Shown here one piece after another: positions 18,391-61,805 of a DNA stretch of 64,000 nucleotides. The notes below the pieces were generated by a model. That model searched no databases. It saw nothing but the letters and a program-made list of their open reading frames with translations, and had not been told where the DNA came from. Location of the stretch: positions 1 to 64,000 of the forward strand of contig NZ_KB907802.1 of assembly GCF_000382225.1 (NCBI RefSeq). Direction: 5' to 3'. This stretch comes from Hymenobacter aerophilus DSM 13606. GTDB lineage: Bacteria; Bacteroidota; Bacteroidia; Cytophagales; Hymenobacteraceae. Numbering within the stretch: the first letter of the stretch is position 1; each line of letters begins with the position of its first letter. The position numbers and the translations under genes were made by a program.

Positions 18391-18497
18391 AACAATTAGT
18401 AATTAATAATTAATAATTAGAAATCAACTGTTTATCAGCCCCAAAAGACCCATAAAGCAGTCAATTTTTAATTCCTAATTATTAATTGTTAATTAAA
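18391..18497. repeat. AT-rich word palindrome between regulator and fabH
   Basis: Arms made of ATTAGTAATTAATAATTA-type words (about 18392-18420) and their complement (about 18465-18495) surround a loop. The element fills the gap between the two same-strand genes and ends just before the fabH stop at 18502. A close relative lies at 60498-60588. Confidence 0.8.
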
Positions 18498-18501
18498 AAA
18501 T

Positions 18502-19521
18502 CTACCACTTGATAAGCGCCGAGGCCCAGGTGAAGCCCGAGCCGAAGGCGGCCAGGCACACCAGGTCGCCGCGCTTGATGCGGCCTTCCTGCACGGCTTC
18601 GCTCAGGGCGATGGGCACGGAGGCGGCGGTAGTGTTGCCGTAGCGCTGGATGTTGCTGAAAATCTTGTCGTCGGAGAGCCCCATTTTCTGCTGCACGTAC
18701 TGCGTGATGCGCAAGTTGGCCTGGTGCGGAATGAGCATGTCGAGGTCCTGGGGCTGGTAGCCGTTGGCGTCGAGCGCCTCCTTGATCACCTGCGGGAAGC
18801 GCACCACGGCGTGCTTGAACACGTTCTGGCCATTCATGACGGGGTAGAGCTCGACCTCGTTCTCCAGGTTCTGTATGAAGGCGGTGCGGTTCTGGCGGTT
18901 CGAGCTGGGCTCCTTTACAATCAATTCCTCGGCGTGCTCGCCCTGCGCGTGCAGGTGCGTGCTCAGTACGCCGTGTCCCTCGCGGGTGCTAGGGCGCATG
19001 ACCACCGCGCCGGCGCCATCGCCAAAAATAACCGACACGGCCCGGCCGCGGGTGCTGATGTCGAGGCCCGAAGAATGGATTTCGGAGCCTACCACCAGCA
19101 CGTTGTCGTACATGCCGGTTTTGATGAACTGGTCGGCCATGCTCAGCGCGTACACGAAGCCCGAGCACTGGTTGCGCACATCGAAGGCCGGTACGGGAGC
19201 CTTGATGCCCAGCTCGCGCTGCAACAGCACGCCCGAGCCGGGGAAGAAATAGTCGGGCGAGAGCGTGGCAAACACAATCATCTGCACATCGTCGGGCTCC
19301 AGGCCGGCCATTTCGAGGGCGCGGCGGGCCGCTTTGGCGCCCATGTTGGCGGTGGTGTCGGTGCCTTCGGTAAACCAGCGCCGCTCCTTGATGCCGGTGC
19401 GCTCCTGAATCCACTCGTCGGTGGTGTCCATGAGGGTGGTGAGGTCGGCATTGGTAACCACGCGCTCGGGCACATAGTGGCCGACGCCGGCAATTTCGGA
19501 GTTGCGTAAGGAGTTAGTCAT
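18502..19521 (-). CDS. fabH: 3-oxoacyl-ACP synthase III (KAS III)
   Basis: KAS III starts fatty acid synthesis by condensing an acyl-CoA primer with malonyl-ACP. The 339-residue protein has the thiolase fold with catalytic Cys119 (RNQCSGFVYALS), the His in IPHQANLRI, and the Asn in RYGNTTAASVPIAL. The C-terminal FGSGFTWASALIKW is typical. In branched-chain-fatty-acid Bacteroidota the primer is often isobutyryl-CoA or isovaleryl-CoA, which would be a metabolic neighbour of IcmF; that link is inference. The gene sits alone with a palindrome downstream. More than one FabH paralog is common in these genomes, so the essential copy cannot be fixed here. Confidence 0.93.
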   Translation of the reverse strand: MTNSLRNSEIAGVGHYVPERVVTNADLTTLMDTTDEWIQERTGIKERRWFTEGTDTTANMGAKAARRALEMAGLEPDDVQMIVFATLSPDYFFPGSGVLLQRELGIKAPVPAFDVRNQCSGFVYALSMADQFIKTGMYDNVLVVGSEIHSSGLDISTRGRAVSVIFGDGAGAVVMRPSTREGHGVLSTHLHAQGEHAEELIVKEPSSNRQNRTAFIQNLENEVELYPVMNGQNVFKHAVVRFPQVIKEALDANGYQPQDLDMLIPHQANLRITQYVQQKMGLSDDKIFSNIQRYGNTTAASVPIALSEAVQEGRIKRGDLVCLAAFGSGFTWASALIKW

Positions 19522-22085: not shown

Positions 22086-22877
22086 AAGAATGTAGTATCG
22101 GCCGCGCAGGCCCGCGAGGAAGTGCGCGACTATGTGGCCCAGGAGCTGAGCCTCGACCCGGAAACCATCCAAACCCGCGTAGTTTTCAACCGCGAGCTGC
22201 CCTGGGTGGATGGCCGCACCCGGCCCTGCTTTCTGGTAGAATGGGCCGAGCCCAACGGCCGCGACGGCGTGGCCCTGGCGGGGCCCTACACCCACAATTT
22301 CTTCGAGTTCACCCGCGCCGACGCCTACCAGCTGGGGGCCCAGAATTCGTGGCGTCAGCAGCTGCTCAACCTGTATGCCGGCTGCGAGCTGGTGGTGCAC
22401 GCCCGCCTCACCCAGCAGCTTACCGACGTGCCCGACCCCACGCGGCTGGCCGTTATCAAGCAGAGCCTGCAGGAGCGCAGCAACTGGCGCGTGGCCGTAA
22501 ACGTGTCGTTGCGTGAGTTTCTGCGCTTGGGCACCGACGAGTACTACATCTTCAACGGCAGCTGGGTCTGGAACCCGCACTACCACTACTCGCCCATCAA
22601 GGGCTTCGTGCCCTTCGGCGACAAAACCCTGATGAGCCTGCCCAAACAGGAGTTTATTCCGGTGAAGTCGCACTCGCCCTTCGAGGCCCTGCCCGAAGTA
22701 GGCGAAGACGGTGCTTACCCCGGCGAGCTGGTCAGCTTCATCATCGTGCGCAACGACCAGATTATCGAAACCCGCGACCTGGACCTCTACACCCGCACCC
22801 TGATGAACCAGGTGGCTACCTTCTATGCCCTCGGCCGCGACCAGGGTCCTTTCCAGATTGAAATGGCCGGAGCTTAG
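22080..22877 (+). CDS. hypothetical conserved protein
   Basis: A 265-residue soluble protein without recognised domains. It is Trp/Tyr-rich in the middle (YYIFNGSWVWNPHYHYSPIKGFVPFGDK) and has an alpha/beta look, with no signal peptide. The GTG at 22080 is the start I use; it lies inside the right arm of the palindrome that follows dapD, so the first codons are repeat-derived. No upstream alternative fits. Its stop lies at the edge of another palindrome (22882-22976). It is flanked on both sides by repeats, so it may have its own transcript. I do not recognise a function. Confidence 0.65.
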   Translation: MIKNVVSAAQAREEVRDYVAQELSLDPETIQTRVVFNRELPWVDGRTRPCFLVEWAEPNGRDGVALAGPYTHNFFEFTRADAYQLGAQNSWRQQLLNLYAGCELVVHARLTQQLTDVPDPTRLAVIKQSLQERSNWRVAVNVSLREFLRLGTDEYYIFNGSWVWNPHYHYSPIKGFVPFGDKTLMSLPKQEFIPVKSHSPFEALPEVGEDGAYPGELVSFIIVRNDQIIETRDLDLYTRTLMNQVATFYALGRDQGPFQIEMAGA

Positions 22878-22881
22878 ACGT

Positions 22882-22976
22882 GAGATATAAGAAGTGAGAG
22901 GTGAGACTTTCGTGCTGACAGCCCAATCAATTAGGGTCGTCGGCACGAAAGTCTCACCTCTCACTTCTTATATCTC
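22882..22976. repeat. perfect 34-bp palindrome between convergent genes
   Basis: Arms 22882-22915 and 22943-22976 are exact complements over 34 bases with a 27-base loop. The outer part is made of GAAGTGAGAG-type words; the inner part is GTGAGACTTTCGTGC. The same outer words recur around 42138-42165. Confidence 0.95.
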
Positions 22977-22986
22977 CCTTCTAAAT

Positions 22987-36074: not shown

Positions 36075-36241
36075 TTGTCATCCTGAGCCCAGCGAAGGAC
36101 CTGTATAGAAGGCACTGAAGCTTTTTAGAAAGTCAGGTTTGATAACGAGTTTGTCATCCTGAGCGGAGCGAAGGCCCTTATCAAGTTGAAACGATGACTG
36201 TTGAAGCGTAGTAAGGTCCTTCGCTGGGCTCAGGATGACAA
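36075..36241. repeat. cluster of three REP-like units after mtgA
   Basis: Unit A (36075-36101) and unit C (36215-36241) are perfect inverted copies over 27 bases, with core CATCCTGAGCCCAGCGAAGG. Unit B (from 36151) is a third copy in the same orientation as A with GCGGAGCG in the middle. The cluster fills the gap to the next gene. Related cores occur at 36750, 42174 and 57169. Confidence 0.9.
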
Positions 36242-36273: not shown

Positions 36274-36735
36274 ATGAAACACCTGCTTTTCCCGCTGCTG
36301 CTGGCCGCCGCGGCCACGCTGCCCGCCTGCTCGCCGCGCCTGGCTGCCCTCACGCCCGCCACCGAGGCCGCGGCCCGCCACGATATTGCGGCGGTGCTCA
36401 ACACCCAAACGGCGGCCTGGAACCGCGGCGACGTGGCCGGCTTCATGCAGGGCTACTGGCAGAACGACTCGCTGGTGTTCATCGGCAAAAGCGGCCTCAC
36501 CTACGGCTGGCAGCACACGCTCGACAACTACCGCCGCAGCTACCCGAGCCCCGCCGCCATGGGCCAGCTCGATTTCAGCCGCCTGCAAATCTGCCCCCTC
36601 AGCCCCGATGCGGCCCAGGTTATCGGCCGCTGGCACCTGGCCCGCCCGGCCGCCGGCGACCTGCAGGGCCACTTCCTGCTGGTGATGCGCCGCATTGCCG
36701 GCAAGTGGGTGGTCGTGGCCGACCATTCGAGTTAG
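36274..36735 (+). CDS. NTF2-like (DUF4440-type) lipoprotein
   Basis: A 153-residue lipoprotein. The signal segment ends with a lipobox LPACS (Cys19). The mature part is a single NTF2-like domain: IAAVLNTQTAAWNRGDVAGFMQGYW, DSLVFIGKSGLTYGW, then the beta strands LDFSRLQICPL and AQVIGRWHL, and GHFLLVMRRIAGKWVVVADHSS. This matches the DUF4440/SnoaL-like group. Members range from enzymes to ligand-binding proteins; the substrate is unknown. Its stop codon lies at the left end of a composite palindrome. Confidence 0.85.
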   Translation: MKHLLFPLLLAAAATLPACSPRLAALTPATEAAARHDIAAVLNTQTAAWNRGDVAGFMQGYWQNDSLVFIGKSGLTYGWQHTLDNYRRSYPSPAAMGQLDFSRLQICPLSPDAAQVIGRWHLARPAAGDLQGHFLLVMRRIAGKWVVVADHSS

Positions 36736-36876
36736 GATTAGGAATGAATGTCATTCAGAGCGCAGCGAAGAATCTCGCGTGCAGTCGTTGGAATATCCTG
36801 CCGATTAGCACGCGAGATTCTTCGCTGCGCTCTGAATGACGTTCTTTCCTAATCCCTAATCCCTAATCCCTAATCC
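36732..36876. repeat. nested composite palindrome supplying both flanking stop codons
   Basis: Outer arms (TAGGATTAGGAAT on the left, CCTAATCCCTAATCCC words on the right at about 36847-36876) surround an inner REP-like pair: CATTCAGAGCGCAGCGAAG from 36751 and its complement ending at 36840. The inner pair extends through AATCTCGCGTGC. The TAG stop of the left gene (36733-36735) and the TAG stop of the convergent right gene (complement of 36870-36872) both lie in the outer arms. Confidence 0.9.
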
Positions 36877-38006
36877 TCCACTTCATCCTTGGCCTTTTCC
36901 TCTTTCACGGCCGGAATGGCCTGGTGGAAGATGAGGCCGGTGGCGGCGGCGTGCTCGGCGGCCTGCACCGTGTCCTGCACCAGCAGCATTTCCACCTTAT
37001 CATTACGCAAATCCTCGCGCACCTGCTCGACCAGGGCGGCCCGGTCGGCGCGGTTAACGTCGCGGATGTAGATGGCCAGGATGCGGCCGGGGTGGCGGCG
37101 CACCACCTCGCGGTAGATGTTGGCGTCTTCCTGGCCCGAGTCGCCGATGAGGATGAAGGGTAGCAGCGCGTAGGTGAGCAGCAGGTTATCGATTTCCTGC
37201 AGCTTGTGGGCGTGGTGGCTGCTGGCGGCGGCCGTCTGGCGGCGCTGCAGACCGGCATCGCGCAGCAGCAGCGGGCCGGGCGGAATGTCGTTGAGGGCCA
37301 GGAAATCGTCGAGCAGGTCGTAGAGGTTCCAGGGCGACGAGCTGACGTAGAAAAACGGGTTGTTGCGCCGGCCGTTACGGCCCAGCTGCAGCTGCCGGTA
37401 GAATTCGGCCACGCCCGCAAACGGCAGCCGCGAGCGGGCGTTGCGCAGCAGCACCGTGCGGGCCATGCGCAGCAAATCGGTGGCCGACGTCTGGATAACC
37501 GTGTCGTCGAGGTCGGAAATGATGCCGTACTCGGCATCTGCGGGCGGAATGAGCACCATGGCGCGGGTGCGCAAATCGGGCGGGGTGGGGAAGGGGGCGG
37601 GCGCCTTCAGCAGCTGCACCGCCACCGGATACCACAAAAAATCGACCGGCGTGGGCAGCGTCTGCGGGGCCAGGTTGAGGGTAAAGTAGCCTTCCTCGTC
37701 GGTGAGGATGGGGTGCTCGGAGCCGTCGGCGGGCCGCACGCTGAGCTGGGCGCCGGCAATTTCGTTGCTGTCGAAGCGCCGGTACATGTTCAGCAGGTTG
37801 TGCCAGCGCGAGTCGGCCGGGTCGGGCTCACCAATGCCCTTGTCGGTGAGCAGGCGGCCCTTCACGTAGAGGCGCTCGGGTGTGCCGTAGCTGCGGTAGG
37901 GCACCAGCTGCAGCGGGTGCAGCAGCCCGAGGCGGGCCCGCAGCCGGGTCAGCGAGTCGTCGGCGCTTTCGGCCCAGTCGTGGAATTTTTGGCGGATAGG
38001 AGGCAT
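36870..38006 (-). CDS. App1/DUF2183-family phosphatidate phosphatase-like protein
   Basis: A 378-residue protein of the App1-like (DUF2183) HAD superfamily. The catalytic motif is SDLDDTVIQT (Asp165, Asp167), followed by FFYVSSSPWNLYDLLDDFL and LIGDSGQEDANIYREVV, which supply the remaining HAD residues. An N-terminal beta domain (VKGRLL to GYFTLNL) precedes it, as in the family. Yeast App1 is a phosphatidate phosphatase, and bacterial members are presumed lipid phosphatases. No signal peptide is seen. It is convergent with the NTF2-like lipoprotein across a composite palindrome. Confidence 0.88.
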   Translation of the reverse strand: MPPIRQKFHDWAESADDSLTRLRARLGLLHPLQLVPYRSYGTPERLYVKGRLLTDKGIGEPDPADSRWHNLLNMYRRFDSNEIAGAQLSVRPADGSEHPILTDEEGYFTLNLAPQTLPTPVDFLWYPVAVQLLKAPAPFPTPPDLRTRAMVLIPPADAEYGIISDLDDTVIQTSATDLLRMARTVLLRNARSRLPFAGVAEFYRQLQLGRNGRRNNPFFYVSSSPWNLYDLLDDFLALNDIPPGPLLLRDAGLQRRQTAAASSHHAHKLQEIDNLLLTYALLPFILIGDSGQEDANIYREVVRRHPGRILAIYIRDVNRADRAALVEQVREDLRNDKVEMLLVQDTVQAAEHAAATGLIFHQAIPAVKEEKAKDEVED

Positions 38007-39236: not shown

Positions 39237-40349
39237 ATGGTTACCACTGCCACCGCCCGCCCCAAAACCAAGAAAAAACGCCTCGCCCCGCTGCCCGAAG
39301 CCCACGAGCTTTACAAGGACCCCGCCCGCCAGGCCGAGCTGGCCGGCCTGCGCTACCTCACCGACAGCAAGCCGGGCCTGACCCGCGAAACCACCCGCGC
39401 CGGCAAGGTGCGCTACCGCACGGCCAAGGGCGAGCTGCTCACCGACGAAAAGACGCTGGCCCGCATCGAGGGCTTCGTGATTCCGCCGGCCTGGACCGAC
39501 GTCTGGATTTCGCCCTCGCCCAACACCCACCTGCAGGTAACGGGCCGCGACGCCAAGGGCCGCAAGCAGTACCTCTACCACCCCGCCTGGGACCAGGCCC
39601 GGGCCCTGACCAAGTTCAGCCGCCTGCGGGCCTTTGGCGAGCAGCTGGCCGGTTTGCGGGCCCGTATGCACAAGGACCTGGCCCGGCCCAAGCTCGATAA
39701 AACTAAAGTGGTGGCCCTGGTGCTCACGCTCATGGATCAGTCGTTTATCCGCGTCGGCAACAAGGAGTACGCCAAGAAAAACAAGACCTACGGCCTGACT
39801 ACGTTGCGCGACAAGCACGTGCAGGTGAGCGGGGCCGATGTGCGCTTCAGCTTCGTGGGCAAGAAGGGCGTGGCCCACGACCTGACCATCCACGACCGGA
39901 AACTGGCCCGCATGGTGCAGAAGTGCAAGGAAATTCCGGGCCAGCACCTGTTCCAGTTCTACACGCCCGACGGCCAGCGCCACGAGCTCGAATCGGGCGA
40001 CGTGAACGACTACCTGCACGAGGCCACCGGCCTGAGCCTCTCGGCCAAGGACTTTAGAACCTGGGGCGGCACCGTGAAAATGGTGGAGTGCCTGGAGCGG
40101 ATTCTGGACGAGGAACCCGAATTTCCGCGCCCCAAAACGCTGAAGCGGGCCATCAAGGACGTAGCCGAAAACCTGGGCAACACGCCCACCGTGTGCTCCA
40201 AATACTATATCCACCCCCAGGTAATCGAGCTGTTCAACTCCAACCAGCTCCTCGACTATCTGCGCCGCCACGATGCCGACCCCAGCCAGAACGACCTGCT
40301 CACGCCCACCGAGCACATGGTACTGGAGATGCTCAAGGAGGTGAAATAG
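39237..40349 (+). CDS. DNA topoisomerase IB (eukaryotic/poxvirus type)
   Basis: A 370-residue type IB topoisomerase, which relaxes supercoils through a 3'-phosphotyrosyl intermediate. The N-terminal domain shows GFVIPPAWTDVWISPSPNTHLQ and DAKGRKQYLYHP, and the catalytic domain has VLTLMDQSFIRVGNKEYAKKN, GLTTLRDKHV and the C-terminal SKYYIHPQVIELF with the active-site Tyr. ATG 39237 gives a Lys-rich N terminus typical of the group. Bacterial TopIB enzymes are scattered among Bacteroidota and Proteobacteria. It is convergent with the kinase-like gene, with a palindrome filling the gap. Confidence 0.94.
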   Translation: MVTTATARPKTKKKRLAPLPEAHELYKDPARQAELAGLRYLTDSKPGLTRETTRAGKVRYRTAKGELLTDEKTLARIEGFVIPPAWTDVWISPSPNTHLQVTGRDAKGRKQYLYHPAWDQARALTKFSRLRAFGEQLAGLRARMHKDLARPKLDKTKVVALVLTLMDQSFIRVGNKEYAKKNKTYGLTTLRDKHVQVSGADVRFSFVGKKGVAHDLTIHDRKLARMVQKCKEIPGQHLFQFYTPDGQRHELESGDVNDYLHEATGLSLSAKDFRTWGGTVKMVECLERILDEEPEFPRPKTLKRAIKDVAENLGNTPTVCSKYYIHPQVIELFNSNQLLDYLRRHDADPSQNDLLTPTEHMVLEMLKEVK

Positions 40350-40483
40350 TGAGATGGTGAAATGGTGAGTTGGTGAAATGGTGAGTTTATTGTTCAAAAG
40401 TCCTGATTACGCCATGTGTGCCGTCAGGATTTTTGAACAGTAAATTCACCATTTCACCAACTCACCATTTCACCAACTCACCG
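40350..40483. repeat. palindrome of GGTGAAATGGTGAGTT words filling a convergent gap
   Basis: Left arm words (GTGAGATGGTGAAATGG and on, 40350-40406) pair with the right arm (from 40423), including the inner TTCAAAAGTCCTGA against TCAGGATTTTTGAA with one mismatch. The element runs exactly from the topoisomerase IB stop to the stop of the convergent gene. Confidence 0.9.
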
Positions 40484-42082: not shown

Positions 42083-42137
42083 GCAGGGCGGAAAATTCGC
42101 GGCTAGGTTCCTTCAACGCAACGCGGGCTTCGCAGTT

Positions 42138-42312
42138 GAGAAGTGAGATATGAGAAGTGAGATATGAGCCCGGTGTCATTCAGAGCGCAGCGAAGAATCT
42201 CGCGTGCTGATGTTGCCATGACGCCTGAATGAAACCTAGCGAGATTCTTCGCTGCGCTCTGAATGACACCGGGCTCATGCCTCCCCTTTTCCCCTCTCAC
42301 TTCTCATGTCTC
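42138..42312. repeat. nested composite palindrome between the divergent kinase-like genes
   Basis: The inner arms (42166-42203 and 42239-42276) are exact complements over 38 bases, containing CCCGGTGTCATTCAGAGCGC and on. Outer arms are GAGAAGTGAGATATGAG words (42138-42165) against CCCTCTCACTTCTCATGTCT on the right (42292-42312). The outer words match those of the palindrome at 22882. Confidence 0.9.
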
Positions 42313-56026: not shown

Positions 56027-57145
56027 GTGCCGGTTTTTCGTTTTTGGGGGTTTGCCAGCCTGTGGGGCGCTGCCCTGCTGAGCGGCTGCTCCGAGCCCGC
56101 CCCGGCCCGGCCCGATACCATGATCGACCTGCGCACCGTGGCCAGCGGCCCGCGCGTGCAGGCCGACGAACTCGATGGCGCCATTGCCCGCCAGCCGCGC
56201 AATGCCTCACTCTACGCCCGTCGGGCTGCGTTCCGCCTCGATGCCGGCCAGACCGACGCGGCCCTGCGCGACATCAACCAGGCCCTCTCGCTCGATGATG
56301 CGCCGGGCCAGTTCTACTTCACCAAGGCCCGCGCTTTGCGCGCCCAGGGGTTCATCAAAGCCGCCCTCGAAGCCACCGACCAGGCCGCCCGCCGTGGCTT
56401 CGCCTCGCCCGAGCTCAACCTGCTGGTAGGGGAGATGCACCTGGCCTCGCGCCGCTACCAGGACGCCCTCGACCAGCTCGACCGGGCCCTGCAGCAGGAA
56501 CCCGACCTGGCGGCGGCCCTCTTCTACAAGGGTCTGGCCTTCGTGGGGCTGAATGATACGGTGCAGGCCCTCGACTACCTGCGCGCCAGCGTGGCCCGCG
56601 CCCCCCGCGAGCCCGAAATCCTGCATCAGCTGGCCTTTTTGTCGAATGCTTACCGCCGGCCCGACCAGGCGGCCGTGTACGCTGCCCGGGGCCTGAAGCT
56701 GGATTCGACTTACGCCCCGCTCTGGTACGATTACGGCCGCCAGTTCGAGCTGCAGAACCAGCCCGGGCCGGCGCTCAGCAGCTACGCCCGCGTCGTGCAG
56801 CTCGATTCTACCTTCTACCGGGCCGATTACCGGCTGGGGCTGGCCGCCTACAAGGCCCGCCGCTACGCGCAGGCCGTGCCGCACCTGCAGCGGGCTCTGC
56901 GCCGCGCGCCGCGCCTGCCCGATGCCCGCTCCATGCTGGCCGAAAGCTTCGAAAGCCAGGGCCGCTGGGCCGAAGCCGCCGACCAGTACCGCCTGCTGGT
57001 AGCCGAGAACCCGGGCAACCGCCGCTGGACCTATAAAGTCTGGAAAGTAGGCAACCGTGCCCGCGGCATCATTGTCGATGAAACTCCCCGCCCCGCACCC
57101 GTGGAAGCCATCGAACCGCTCGATTTATTCAAGCCGGGGCTGTGA
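56027..57145 (+). CDS. tetratricopeptide-repeat lipoprotein
   Basis: A 372-residue lipoprotein (GTG start). The lipobox is LLSGC at about residue 21. The mature protein is almost entirely TPR repeats (for example NASLYARRAAFRLDAGQTDAALRDINQAL style, and later YRADYRLGLAAYKARRYAQAV). Lipoproteins with tandem TPRs in Bacteroidota serve as partner scaffolds in secretion or envelope assembly; the partner is unknown. Its stop codon lies in the outer arm of the composite palindrome at 57142-57310. Confidence 0.75.
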   Translation: MPVFRFWGFASLWGAALLSGCSEPAPARPDTMIDLRTVASGPRVQADELDGAIARQPRNASLYARRAAFRLDAGQTDAALRDINQALSLDDAPGQFYFTKARALRAQGFIKAALEATDQAARRGFASPELNLLVGEMHLASRRYQDALDQLDRALQQEPDLAAALFYKGLAFVGLNDTVQALDYLRASVARAPREPEILHQLAFLSNAYRRPDQAAVYAARGLKLDSTYAPLWYDYGRQFELQNQPGPALSSYARVVQLDSTFYRADYRLGLAAYKARRYAQAVPHLQRALRRAPRLPDARSMLAESFESQGRWAEAADQYRLLVAENPGNRRWTYKVWKVGNRARGIIVDETPRPAPVEAIEPLDLFKPGL

Positions 57146-57310
57146 TTTGGCGATGTGGTGGGAAGCCTGTCATCCTGAGCGCAGCGAAGGACCTATACGG
57201 AAGGTATTACCGGCTGTTAGCTTCTGTATAGGTCCTTCGCTGCGCTCAGGATGACGACTAAAACCCCATCCACCCACCAAATCACCACGTCACCAAATCG
57301 CCAAATCACC
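57142..57310. repeat. nested composite palindrome between TPR lipoprotein gene and thrS
   Basis: The inner pair (57169-57203 and 57221-57255) is complementary at 34 of 35 bases, with core CATCCTGAGCGCAGCGAAGG. The outer arms are GTGATTTGGCGATGTGGTGG on the left against CCACCAAATCACC / CACCAAATCGCC words on the right. The TGA stop (57143-57145) is inside the left outer arm. Confidence 0.9.
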
Positions 57311-60305: not shown

Positions 60306-60500
60306 ATGCCGAAAATGAAGACCAAGTCCGGCGCCAAAAAGCGTTTTACGCTGACCGGCACGGGCAAAATCAAGCGTAAGCACGCCTTCAAAAGCCACAT
60401 CTTGACCAAGAAAACCACCAAGCAGAAGCGTAACCTTACGCACGTAACGCTGGTTTCTTCGGCCGACATGAACCGCGTAAAGGACATGCTGAATATGTAA
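60306..60500 (+). CDS. rpmI: 50S ribosomal protein L35
   Basis: A 64-residue basic protein with the L35 signature: [28 protein letters not shown] and NRVKDMLNM. It sits between infC and rplT as usual. Its TAA stop (60498-60500) is the first codon of an AT-rich palindrome, which separates it from rplT. Confidence 0.96.
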
Positions 60501-60588
60501 TTAGTAATTAAGAATTAGTAATGGTCAGTTCTCAACTCAATTGAGCCCAACGATAATTCTTAATTACTAATTGTTAATTCTTAATTAA
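60498..60588. repeat. AT-rich palindrome inside the rpmI-rplT operon
   Basis: TAATTAGTAATTAAGAATTA words (60498-60520) pair with the complement at about 60556-60588. A smaller inverted repeat CTCAACT/... CAATTGAG is inside. It lies between two cotranscribed ribosomal genes and starts at the rpmI stop codon. Confidence 0.85.
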
Positions 60589-60664
60589 ACCAAAACCAGG
60601 CGTCCGGTAGGAACCTAAGCTGCGGCAGTCAGTCCGCCGCCGGCCGCCAAAAACAACCCAGGTT

Positions 60665-61731: not shown

Positions 61732-61805
61732 TAGCGGGAACGAGAGTTGAACTCGTGACCTCAGGGTTATGAATCCTGTGCTCTAACCAACTGAGCTATC
61801 CCGCC
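61732..61805 (-). tRNA. tRNA-Met (CAU)
   Basis: The reverse strand folds as a cloverleaf: a 7-bp acceptor stem with a G1:U72 pair, T8-A9, a D arm with GCTC/GAGC, the anticodon loop TTCATAA with anticodon CAU, the T-stem/loop ACGAG-TTCAACT-CTCGT, and discriminator A73. One mismatch (A31:C39) is in the anticodon stem. CCA is not encoded. The shape suits elongator tRNA-Met; tRNA-Ile2, which also carries CAU and needs lysidine, cannot be fully excluded. A promoter and a terminator flank it. Confidence 0.93.

What the first reader, a model, noticed from the sequence alone, without database searches (positions are those of the whole stretch)
36732..36876. Compound palindrome whose outer arms contain the stop codons of both convergent genes
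The TAG of the NTF2-like gene and the TAG of the App1-like gene both fall inside arms made of TAGGGAT/ATCCCTA words, around an inner REP-like pair. The same placement, with a stop codon inside or beside the repeat arm, is seen at 22877, 23716, 40349/40484, 46889, 57143 and 60498. A repeat that settles exactly at gene ends in so many places is hard to explain as chance. It may be a dedicated 3'-end device, for example transcript ends or protection of RNA 3' ends, that has spread by copying.
Basis: partly seen in the sequence, partly recalled or inferred. Interest (0 to 1): 0.82.

Follow-up and report, generated by a model that had tools for sequence, protein, structure and literature searches.

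The report
Word-armed palindromes filling gene gaps
In this Hymenobacter bacterium a number of gaps between genes are filled, nearly from one gene's edge to the next, by long hairpin-forming repeats whose arms are built of 7- or 8-letter words; the wording changes quickly between species and the two arms change together, which points to a DNA copying process that keeps writing hairpins at gene ends.

Summary
At 36733-36876 a REP pair (REPIN) sits inside TTAGGGA-type heptamer words; one stop codon touches the stem edge, the other lies in the word array outside the stem. In 864 kb of this Hymenobacter genome palindromes are common between convergent genes (53 of 110 gaps), rarer between divergent ones (16 of 109), absent at that score from shuffled gaps. 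Those with word arms hug stop codons: 48 of 52 within 15 nt, against 10% of random intergenic positions. Arrays have almost only period 7 or 8 and read G-rich inward from both edges, lone arrays included. A second species gives the same pattern.

A close relative keeps a palindrome in 31 of 43 such gaps, often with other words; farther ones keep fewer. Arms show about tenfold excess compensatory change, without the G-U preference of terminator-like hairpins in the same genome. At the target site many other species carry ordinary terminators.

Best reading: copied REPIN/octamer seeds whose arms are extended and matched by DNA slippage and template switching, retained at gene ends as hairpin 3' ends. 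A dedicated RNA device is not shown. Closest known: REPINs and Xanthomonas/Nostoc heptamer repeats. New variant of a known kind.

The parts
   Evidence: PF14534 E 5.9e-12; gene call
36735..36749 (+). left outer word arm GGATTAGGAATGAAT, about one and a half TTAGGGA-type words
   Evidence: paired with 36841-36855 in the fold
36750..36782 (+). left REP of the inner pair (GTCATTCAGAGCGCAGCGAAGAATCTCGCGTGC)
   Evidence: core motif has 250 forward and 252 reverse matches in the genome with up to 1 mismatch, reversed-pattern control 0
36783..36807 (.). loop between the two REPs
36808..36840 (-). right REP, inverted copy
36841..36855 (.). GTTCTTTCCTAATCC, right outer arm pairing with the left word arm
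36848..36876 (-). heptamer array (GGATTAG, 4.1 copies, read from the App1-like gene); runs through that gene's stop and four bases into its coding sequence
   Evidence: left edge -7 in the gene-end scan
36870..38006 (-). right convergent gene, App1-like phosphatase; stop CTA at 36870-36872
   Evidence: PF09949 E 2.4e-49
40349..40481 (.). octamer-word palindrome (GGTGAAAT/GGTGAGTT) from stop to stop; member of the octamer family
22874..22984 (.). palindrome from stop to stop with heptamer-like words (GTGAGAN) by eye; below my word threshold
   Evidence: compensatory changes against G001 and G079
18394..18507 (.). AATTAAT-word palindrome filling a co-directional gap from stop to start
60498..60587 (.). 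AATTAGT-word palindrome between rpmI (L35) and rplT (L20), beginning at the L35 stop
57169..57255 (.). REPIN (GTCATCCTGAGC...GAAGGACCT) with weak outer words, after the stop at 57143-57145
42137..42283 (.). REPIN with TGAGAAG/TGAGATA words in a divergent gap

Best explanation
The feature is a compound intergenic palindrome: a REPIN nested in heptamer-word arms, one of a class of 7- or 8-nt word-armed palindromes that fill gaps between genes in this Hymenobacter lineage. Seeds (REPINs, the octamer family) arrive by copying. The arms are then lengthened by unit slippage and kept complementary by replication template switching, which copies one arm onto the other at the DNA level. Growth stops at, or just inside, coding sequence, so the array runs up to the stop codon and sometimes supplies it. 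The hairpins are kept mainly at gene ends, where a long RNA hairpin is harmless or serves as a transcript 3' end, and are removed from promoters. Shown: structure, position, periodicity, inward G-rich rule, turnover, compensatory change, no detectable G-U bias. Inferred: slippage and template switching as the process, and the 3'-end role.
For: Word-armed palindromes without REP leave little space: summed gaps to both genes 5 nt in convergent pairs (n 13) against 62 nt for palindrome-free gaps (p 6e-4), 24.5 against 105 nt in co-directional pairs (n 30, p 1.6e-5). Array periods in gaps: 7 (40), 8 (15), 14 (42), at most 3 for any other from 4 to 13; G001: 40, 13, 27, others at most 2. Lag matching rises at the stop (43 of 48 arrays profiled). 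Own genome against relatives at 28 alignable site pairs: 34 compensatory double changes among 842 base pairs, about 3.5 expected if the sides were independent; one-sided changes 21 to G-T and 29 to A-C (sites recur with several relatives, so not all independent). Standing mismatches in co-directional stems G-T 90, A-C 72, against 64 and 21 in the best terminator-like hairpin of 128 co-directional gaps (Fisher p 0.0024). Inward arms C 9%, G 33%, 36 of 43 loci with less C than G, the direction (5' G over C) that PMC8794818 predicts for intrastrand template switching (passages read). Co-directional gaps with a palindrome in own genome hold an unalike one in G001 (9, against 9 with none; 13 alike or intermediate left out) more often than gaps without (5 of 33) (p 0.019).
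Against: No RNA or mutation-rate data. Compensatory change also fits selection on structure; convergent stems are read from both strands, so G-T/A-C counts say little there, and the co-directional numbers are moderate. The terminator control also holds 118 other mismatches, so part of those hairpins are chance. PMC8794818 concerns RNA genes, not bacterial gaps. The T over A excess predicted by the same model is slight (0.301 against 0.280). 27 of 98 arrays have no inverted partner and one REPIN has different words on its two sides, so arm-to-arm copying is not universal. The four farther relatives keep a palindrome in only 14 of 40 co-directional gaps (10 of 15 convergent). Period 7-8 is not explained by this model.
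Confidence: 0.5

Rival explanations
1. A selected 3'-end RNA device: the hairpin ends transcripts from both genes or shields RNA 3' ends, and selection on RNA pairing keeps the arms matched.
For: Convergent 53 of 110 against divergent 16 of 109 gaps, 24 of 60 against 4 of 64 in G001. Separate terminator-like hairpins in 0 of 19 word-armed convergent gaps and 1 of 16 REP-only gaps against 6 of 34 without a palindrome (p 0.08 and, pooled, 0.055). In relatives, terminators in 7 of 52 gaps where both species have palindromes against 27 of 72 where neither has (p 0.004). At the target site, 43 convergent loci of the genus: terminator only 18, word/REP palindrome only 10, both 4, neither 11 (p 0.055). 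In G087, G079 and G114 a GC hairpin followed by TTTTT stands where G000 has a REPIN and G001 and G053 octamer palindromes, downstream of the gene ending at 57145 (read by eye). PMC4692102 reports transcripts starting or stopping more often at G4-capable heptamer repeats (section read).
Against: No G-U over A-C bias in co-directional stems while terminator-like hairpins of the same genome show 3 to 1. Where own genome has a palindrome and the relative has none, the relative has a terminator in only 6 of 41 gaps, so most are not terminator replacements. The target lacks a good U-tract. Arrays also abut starts. One lies between rpmI and rplT.
Confidence: 0.25
2. Ordinary mobile repeats: REPINs and REP-like families moved by RAYT transposases, with insertion or survival favoured next to stop codons; words are passive tails.
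For: 502 REP core hits, three Y1_Tnp genes, octamer family with a conserved core at dispersed sites, covariation in its stem above every shuffle, REP pairs nested inside octamer palindromes.
Against: REP-only palindromes sit a median 17 nt from stops, word-armed ones 5 nt. Word order differs from locus to locus (by eye). At rpmI-rplT 25 of 30 same-genus loci have extra sequence right after the stop with many different words. Cores of the other word classes were not compared and target duplications were not systematically sought.
Confidence: 0.15
3. Translation control: a hairpin within 15 nt of the stop stalls terminating ribosomes, as reported for E. coli REPs; word arrays also place stops in all three frames.
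For: 48 of 52 word-armed palindromes within 15 nt of a stop. Three-frame stops within 45 nt in 30 of 51 word cases against 39 of 303 gaps without palindromes (p 8e-12). The 15-nt rule is cited in PMC12306157 (passages read).
Against: The most enriched triplets in the arms are AGC and GCT, not stops; TAA is under-represented. The inward G-rich rule also holds on the start side of gaps.
Confidence: 0.04
4. C-rich, G-poor 3' arms with regularly spaced YC dimers are Rho loading sites, giving Rho-dependent ends on both strands (the YC-dimer rule is from recall).
For: The 3' arms are the complement of arms with C 9%, G 33% and repeat every 7-8 nt.
Against: The C-rich arm pairs with the G-rich one in the fold; GCT-type words have few YC dimers in the 3' arm (by eye); nothing was tested on Rho, and the literature search was seen as a listing only.
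Confidence: 0.04

Closest known systems
REPINs / REP elements with RAYT (TnpA-REP) transposases
   Same: Inner pair of inverted REPs, 502 core hits, Y1_Tnp genes in the genome.
   Different: Outer arms of 7-8 nt words running to the coding edges are, to my knowledge, not part of the REPIN definition; word-armed palindromes also exist without a REP core.
Heptameric G-rich repeats of Xanthomonas (GGGAATC) and Nostoc (GGGGA(T/C)T), PMC4692102
   Same: [quoted passage not shown] The target's (GGGATTA)n fits the loose form GGGANTN.
   Different: Here several word classes, octamers too, joined to REPIN or family cores, filling gaps edge to edge; no GGGAATC unit at the target.
Template-switch mutations that create and maintain hairpins (PMC8794818); transcription-linked quasi-palindrome mutations in yeast (PMC3820800)
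   Same: Compensatory change in stems, 5' G excess (abstracts and, for the first, passages).
   Different: Those describe RNA genes and a yeast assay; here bacterial gaps, and no event was observed directly.
TAACTGA heptamer direct repeats of Beggiatoaceae, cyanobacteria and five Bacteroidetes, PMC4679880
   Same: Intergenic heptamer arrays, long ones in some Bacteroidetes (abstract and section 12).
   Different: Direct repeats, one word, in the main genome studied mostly just before start codons.

Membership tests
REPIN / REP | high-copy short extragenic palindrome | tested here: met
   250 forward and 252 reverse core matches with up to 1 mismatch, control 0
REPIN / REP | two REPs in inverted orientation at short distance | tested here: met
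   36750-36782 and 36808-36840
REPIN / REP | a RAYT-type Y1 transposase in the genome | tested here: met
   three PF01797 matches over the cut-off; link of this REP to them not tested
REPIN / REP | tetranucleotide tag (GTAG or CGTC) at the REP foot | tested here: inconclusive
   several copies begin CGTCATTC, the target's left copy TGTCATTC and its right copy CGTCATTC; not counted
Xanthomonas/Nostoc heptamer repeats | heptamer period | tested here: met
   periods 7 and 14 dominate, 8 is third
Xanthomonas/Nostoc heptamer repeats | G-rich strand on the coding strand near the stop | tested here: met
   left-side arrays G>C 41, C>G 4; right-side 5 and 43; 5 of 98 equal (test)
Xanthomonas/Nostoc heptamer repeats | contains the GGGAATC (or GGGGA(T/C)T) unit | tested here: not met
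   target unit is GGGATTA
intrinsic terminator | hairpin followed by a U-tract | tested here: not met
   at the target GTTCTTTCC on one strand and GACATTCATTCC on the other (by eye)
intrinsic terminator | G-U tolerated over A-C in the stem | tested here: not met
   for the class, not the single site: 90 to 72 against 64 to 21 in terminator-like hairpins
known RNA family (Rfam 15) | match at gathering score | tested here: not met
   only a tRNA at 61732-61805 in the window
template-switch palindrome | excess compensatory change without wobble intermediates | tested here: met
template-switch palindrome | direct observation of arm-copying events | not testable with these tools
   needs population or mutation-accumulation sequencing

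The most novel reading that the evidence does not exclude
Gaps between bacterial genes carry a writing rule: arrays of 7-8 nt words, G-rich when read inward from either gene, grow as self-copying palindromes until they meet coding sequence. The process would be a general mutational engine, driven by template switching where DNA is exposed beyond the last codon, that keeps supplying fresh hairpins, some of which replace, and are replaced by, ordinary terminators. The same rule would explain the heptamer repeats of Xanthomonas and Nostoc and the noted excess of heptamers in bacteria.
Probability: 0.25. Interest if true: 0.8.

Novelty: new variant of a known kind. Interest (0 to 1): 0.6.

Why it matters
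If right, hairpins at gene ends in this lineage are produced by a DNA copying process and only then used or tolerated, so compensatory change in a stem is not by itself proof of an RNA function. It also gives a simple positional and strand rule that links REPINs with heptamer repeats in unrelated bacteria, and makes the open question of why heptamers are common in bacterial gaps testable with mutation accumulation and 3'-end mapping in harmless laboratory strains.

Tried and rejected
Three-frame stop arrays as the purpose of the words: stops are enriched in word gaps, but AGC/GCT, which hold no stop, are the more enriched triplets and TAA is depleted, so I hold it as a by-product. A fixed target site at stop codons: the target's left stop TAG is present in G001 without a left array, so that stop was not brought in by the array there. 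A purely transcription-oriented rule (G-rich non-template strand): lone arrays nearer the downstream start are C-rich on the sense strand in 10 of 11 co-directional cases, the eleventh equal, so the rule follows the side of the gap, not the direction of transcription. Terminator replacement as the whole story: where own genome has a palindrome and the relative none, the relative has a terminator in 6 of 41 gaps, fewer than the 27 of 72 where neither has a palindrome (p 0.01). Rfam: no match but a tRNA. Literature: no paper held both Hymenobacter and REPIN; the ten searches listed no report of this feature in Hymenobacter that I recognised; they cover open-licence papers only and most hits were seen as listings. 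Breadth by 20-kb samples: palindromes of score 16 or more per 100 kb 28 in own window, 19 in the genus, 7.5-18 in five other genera of the family, 0-1.7 outside; one stretch per genome apart from own and G001, so rough. At the target site other genera are not free of such palindromes: 8 of 21 loci flagged word/REP (5 alone, 3 with a terminator), 2 terminator only, 11 neither. One search prints a wrong Fisher line (a script error summed word periods); the tally lines of that call are right and were retested. Searches failed and were rewritten; one search missed the loci on the other strand, which repaired.

Limits of counts: genes were called by my own script, so some short genes and starts are wrong; gaps over 800 nt were counted but not scanned (657 of 681 scanned); the word class rests on a threshold. 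In one search I aligned 17 of the 24 octamer-type copies listed; the seven left out are longer (84-144 nt, some with REPs or other inserts), and one row was cut at its 3' end. The 43 target-site loci are those of 48 with a convergent frame and a gap of 25 nt or more; they include one Solirubrum and two copies from one genome, and not the window itself. One change of odds after rechecking: rival 1 from 0.27 to 0.25, because farther relatives keep fewer palindromes than I first wrote and because of the 6 of 41.

Full report
What is there. The window is the first 64 kb of contig C3 of a 4.25-Mb genome; the nearest named relatives of the App1-like protein are Hymenobacter. At 36733-36876, between a DUF4440 gene and an App1-like gene that converge, lies a 48-nt arm pair, 96% complementary. 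Its core is a pair of inverted REPs whose core motif has 250 forward and 252 reverse matches in the genome with up to one mismatch, and none for the reversed pattern. Outside it are TTAGGGA-type words: about one and a half on the left, 4.1 copies on the right. It folds at -98 and -93 kcal/mol on the two strands. The left gene's stop touches the stem; the right gene's stop lies in the word array, in the unpaired tail.

How common. I took 800 kb more of the same genome, called genes with my own script (681 gaps) and searched the gaps up to 800 nt for their best palindrome. At score 20 or more: convergent 53 of 110, co-directional 109 of 462, divergent 16 of 109; dinucleotide-shuffled gaps gave none at 16 or more. 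Convergent against divergent p 1e-7; co-directional against divergent only p 0.05. At score 16 or more there are 222, of which 58 have arms with a 7- or 8-nt period.

Position. The nearer edge of word-armed palindromes is a median 5 nt from a stop (27 of 52 within 5 nt, 48 of 52 within 15), REP-only ones 17 nt, other non-word ones 15 nt, terminator-like ones 20 nt, random intergenic positions 90 nt. Non-REP word-armed palindromes fill the gap: 5 nt in all left uncovered in convergent gaps against 62 nt in palindrome-free ones, 24.5 against 105 nt in co-directional gaps, 14 against 224 nt in five divergent ones. They also reach start codons: 13 of 30 co-directional cases end within 15 nt of the next start. 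Scanning gene ends directly, 48 of 710 have an array within 50 nt after the stop and 24 of 711 gene starts have one upstream (p 0.004). The lag match rises from a background of about 0.25 to 0.5-0.6 at the last base of the stop and to 0.8 or more within five bases (43 of the 48 profiled), so the arrays stop at, or a few bases inside, the coding sequence. At the App1-like gene the array runs four bases into it.

Period and strand rule. Arrays in gaps have period 7 (40), 8 (15) or 14 (42); every other period from 4 to 13 has at most 3. Read inward from either gene the arrays are G-rich and C-poor: 41 left-side arrays have more G than C and 4 the reverse, 5 and 43 on the right (p 3e-16). For arrays with a partner this is partly forced by the palindrome, but lone arrays obey it too: 11 to 1 on the left, 0 to 13 on the right. 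G001 shows the same on 480 kb: convergent 24 of 60, co-directional 50 of 239, divergent 4 of 64; period 7 (40) and 8 (13); left arrays 29 to 5, right 2 to 24; median 2 nt from the stop. Four further relatives together have far fewer arrays (period 7 and 8, four each) but the same strand rule, left 7 to 2 and right 0 to 6.

Turnover. I compared orthologous gaps in G001, G087, G079, G114 and G053. G001 keeps a palindrome in 6 of 7 convergent, 22 of 31 co-directional and 3 of 5 divergent gaps where own genome has one; the four farther relatives together in 10 of 15, 14 of 40 and 4 of 7. Gains the other way are rare in co-directional gaps: 5 of 33 in G001, 3 of 42 in the four. Of the 22 shared co-directional gaps with G001, 9 are alike, 4 intermediate and 9 unalike; leaving out the alike and intermediate ones the association remains (p 0.019). 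At 40350-40483 own genome, G001 and G053 have octamer words of different number and order, G087 and G114 have REP-type palindromes, G079 an unrelated one (by eye). At rpmI-rplT, 30 same-genus loci (the 30 best of 61 genomes) show either a short gap (L124, L125, L128, L136, and L130 a little longer) or about 55-90 nt more right after the L35 stop with many different words; only 9 of 30 pass a score of 12, so many are decayed, and none of the 19 resolved loci from the wider phylum passes it (9 of those 28 were not resolved). Part of that series looks like gradual change of one hairpin (shared TTAGNAAT starts), part does not.

DNA or RNA level. Where own and relative palindromes align (28 site pairs, several sites used with more than one relative), 842 base pairs contain 34 Watson-Crick double changes; independence predicts about 10.4 double changes, a third of them paired. 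One-sided changes are 21 to G-T and 29 to A-C, and 19 double changes are broken. Standing mismatches in co-directional stems are 90 G-T and 72 A-C, while terminator-like hairpins from 128 co-directional gaps have 64 and 21: p 0.0024. Those hairpins also hold 118 other mismatches, so some are chance, which should only dilute their bias. So pairing is restored without the wobble surplus that RNA selection leaves elsewhere in the same genome. The octamer family, 17 of 24 listed copies aligned, shows covariation above all 500 shuffles and far above slid partners; the copies are related, and structure was read from them. PMC8794818 proposes that template switching both creates and repairs stems and predicts G over C and U over A on the 5' side (abstract and passages read); the arms here have G 0.33, C 0.09, T 0.30, A 0.28, clear for G, slight for T. 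PMC3820800 (abstract read) links such events to transcription in yeast.

Function. For a 3'-end role: the gene-end bias; separate terminators in 0 of 19 word-armed and 1 of 16 REP-only convergent gaps against 6 of 34 without palindromes (not significant, p 0.08 and 0.055 pooled); terminators in 7 of 52 relative gaps where both species have palindromes against 27 of 72 where neither has; and the target gap itself, where 43 loci of the genus with a convergent gap of 25 nt or more show terminator only 18, word/REP palindrome only 10, both 4, neither 11 (p 0.055). Against: where own genome has a palindrome and the relative none, only 6 of 41 relative gaps have a terminator; no good U-tract at the target; no G-U bias; edges at starts; the rpmI-rplT site. 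A hairpin this close to a stop could also stall ribosomes, as PMC12306157 recounts for E. coli REPs (passages).

Known relatives. The nearest are REPINs and the G-rich heptamer repeats of Xanthomonas and Nostoc (PMC4692102, abstract, sections 10, 13, 15 and passages read), which share period, strand rule, stop proximity and inverted pairing but use one word or word type per genome. TAACTGA repeats (PMC4679880, abstract and section 12) are a looser relative. The several-word, edge-to-edge, REPIN-carrying form in Hymenobacter is a new variant. Octamer words vary from 0 to 386 hits per genome among the 120 family genomes searched, so lineages differ in vocabulary. At the target site other genera also show such palindromes in 8 of 21 loci, so the kind is not confined to this genus.

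Verdict. I favour DNA-level growth and arm copying of seeded palindromes, kept where a hairpin end is harmless or useful.

Noticed in passing
window about 60590-60664: A conserved leader between the word palindrome and the L20 start (ACCAGGCGTCCGG...GCCAAAAAC or close variants) recurs in the same-genus rpmI-rplT loci (by eye); possibly an L20 autoregulatory element. No Rfam match.
   Followed up: no
G000 C1:262640, C5:15013, C2:91141, C3:220266: REP pairs or the GCCCCAGCGGGGC repeat sit inside octamer palindromes, near the loop, as nested insertions.
   Followed up: partly
   Followed up: partly
L042 800-1010: One REPIN has CAGTTGT heptamers on its left and CCCTAAT heptamers on its right, so the two outer arrays can be of different word classes.
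   Followed up: no
G000 C3:159404-159763, C35:29996-30340, C9:71185-71421: Three Y1_Tnp (RAYT-type) genes that may mobilise the REPs.
   Followed up: no
G282 and G298 (another genus of the family): The octamer word pattern has 223 and 220 hits there, 40 and 50 in two more genomes of that genus (G286, G294), and at most a few in the other family genera sampled.
   Followed up: no
L191 (G230, same phylum, another class): Four period-7 arrays in a 20-kb sample.
   Followed up: no
window 36075-36241: Two further REPs of the GTCATCCTGAGC type with one inverted copy in the gap before the DUF4440 gene.
   Followed up: no
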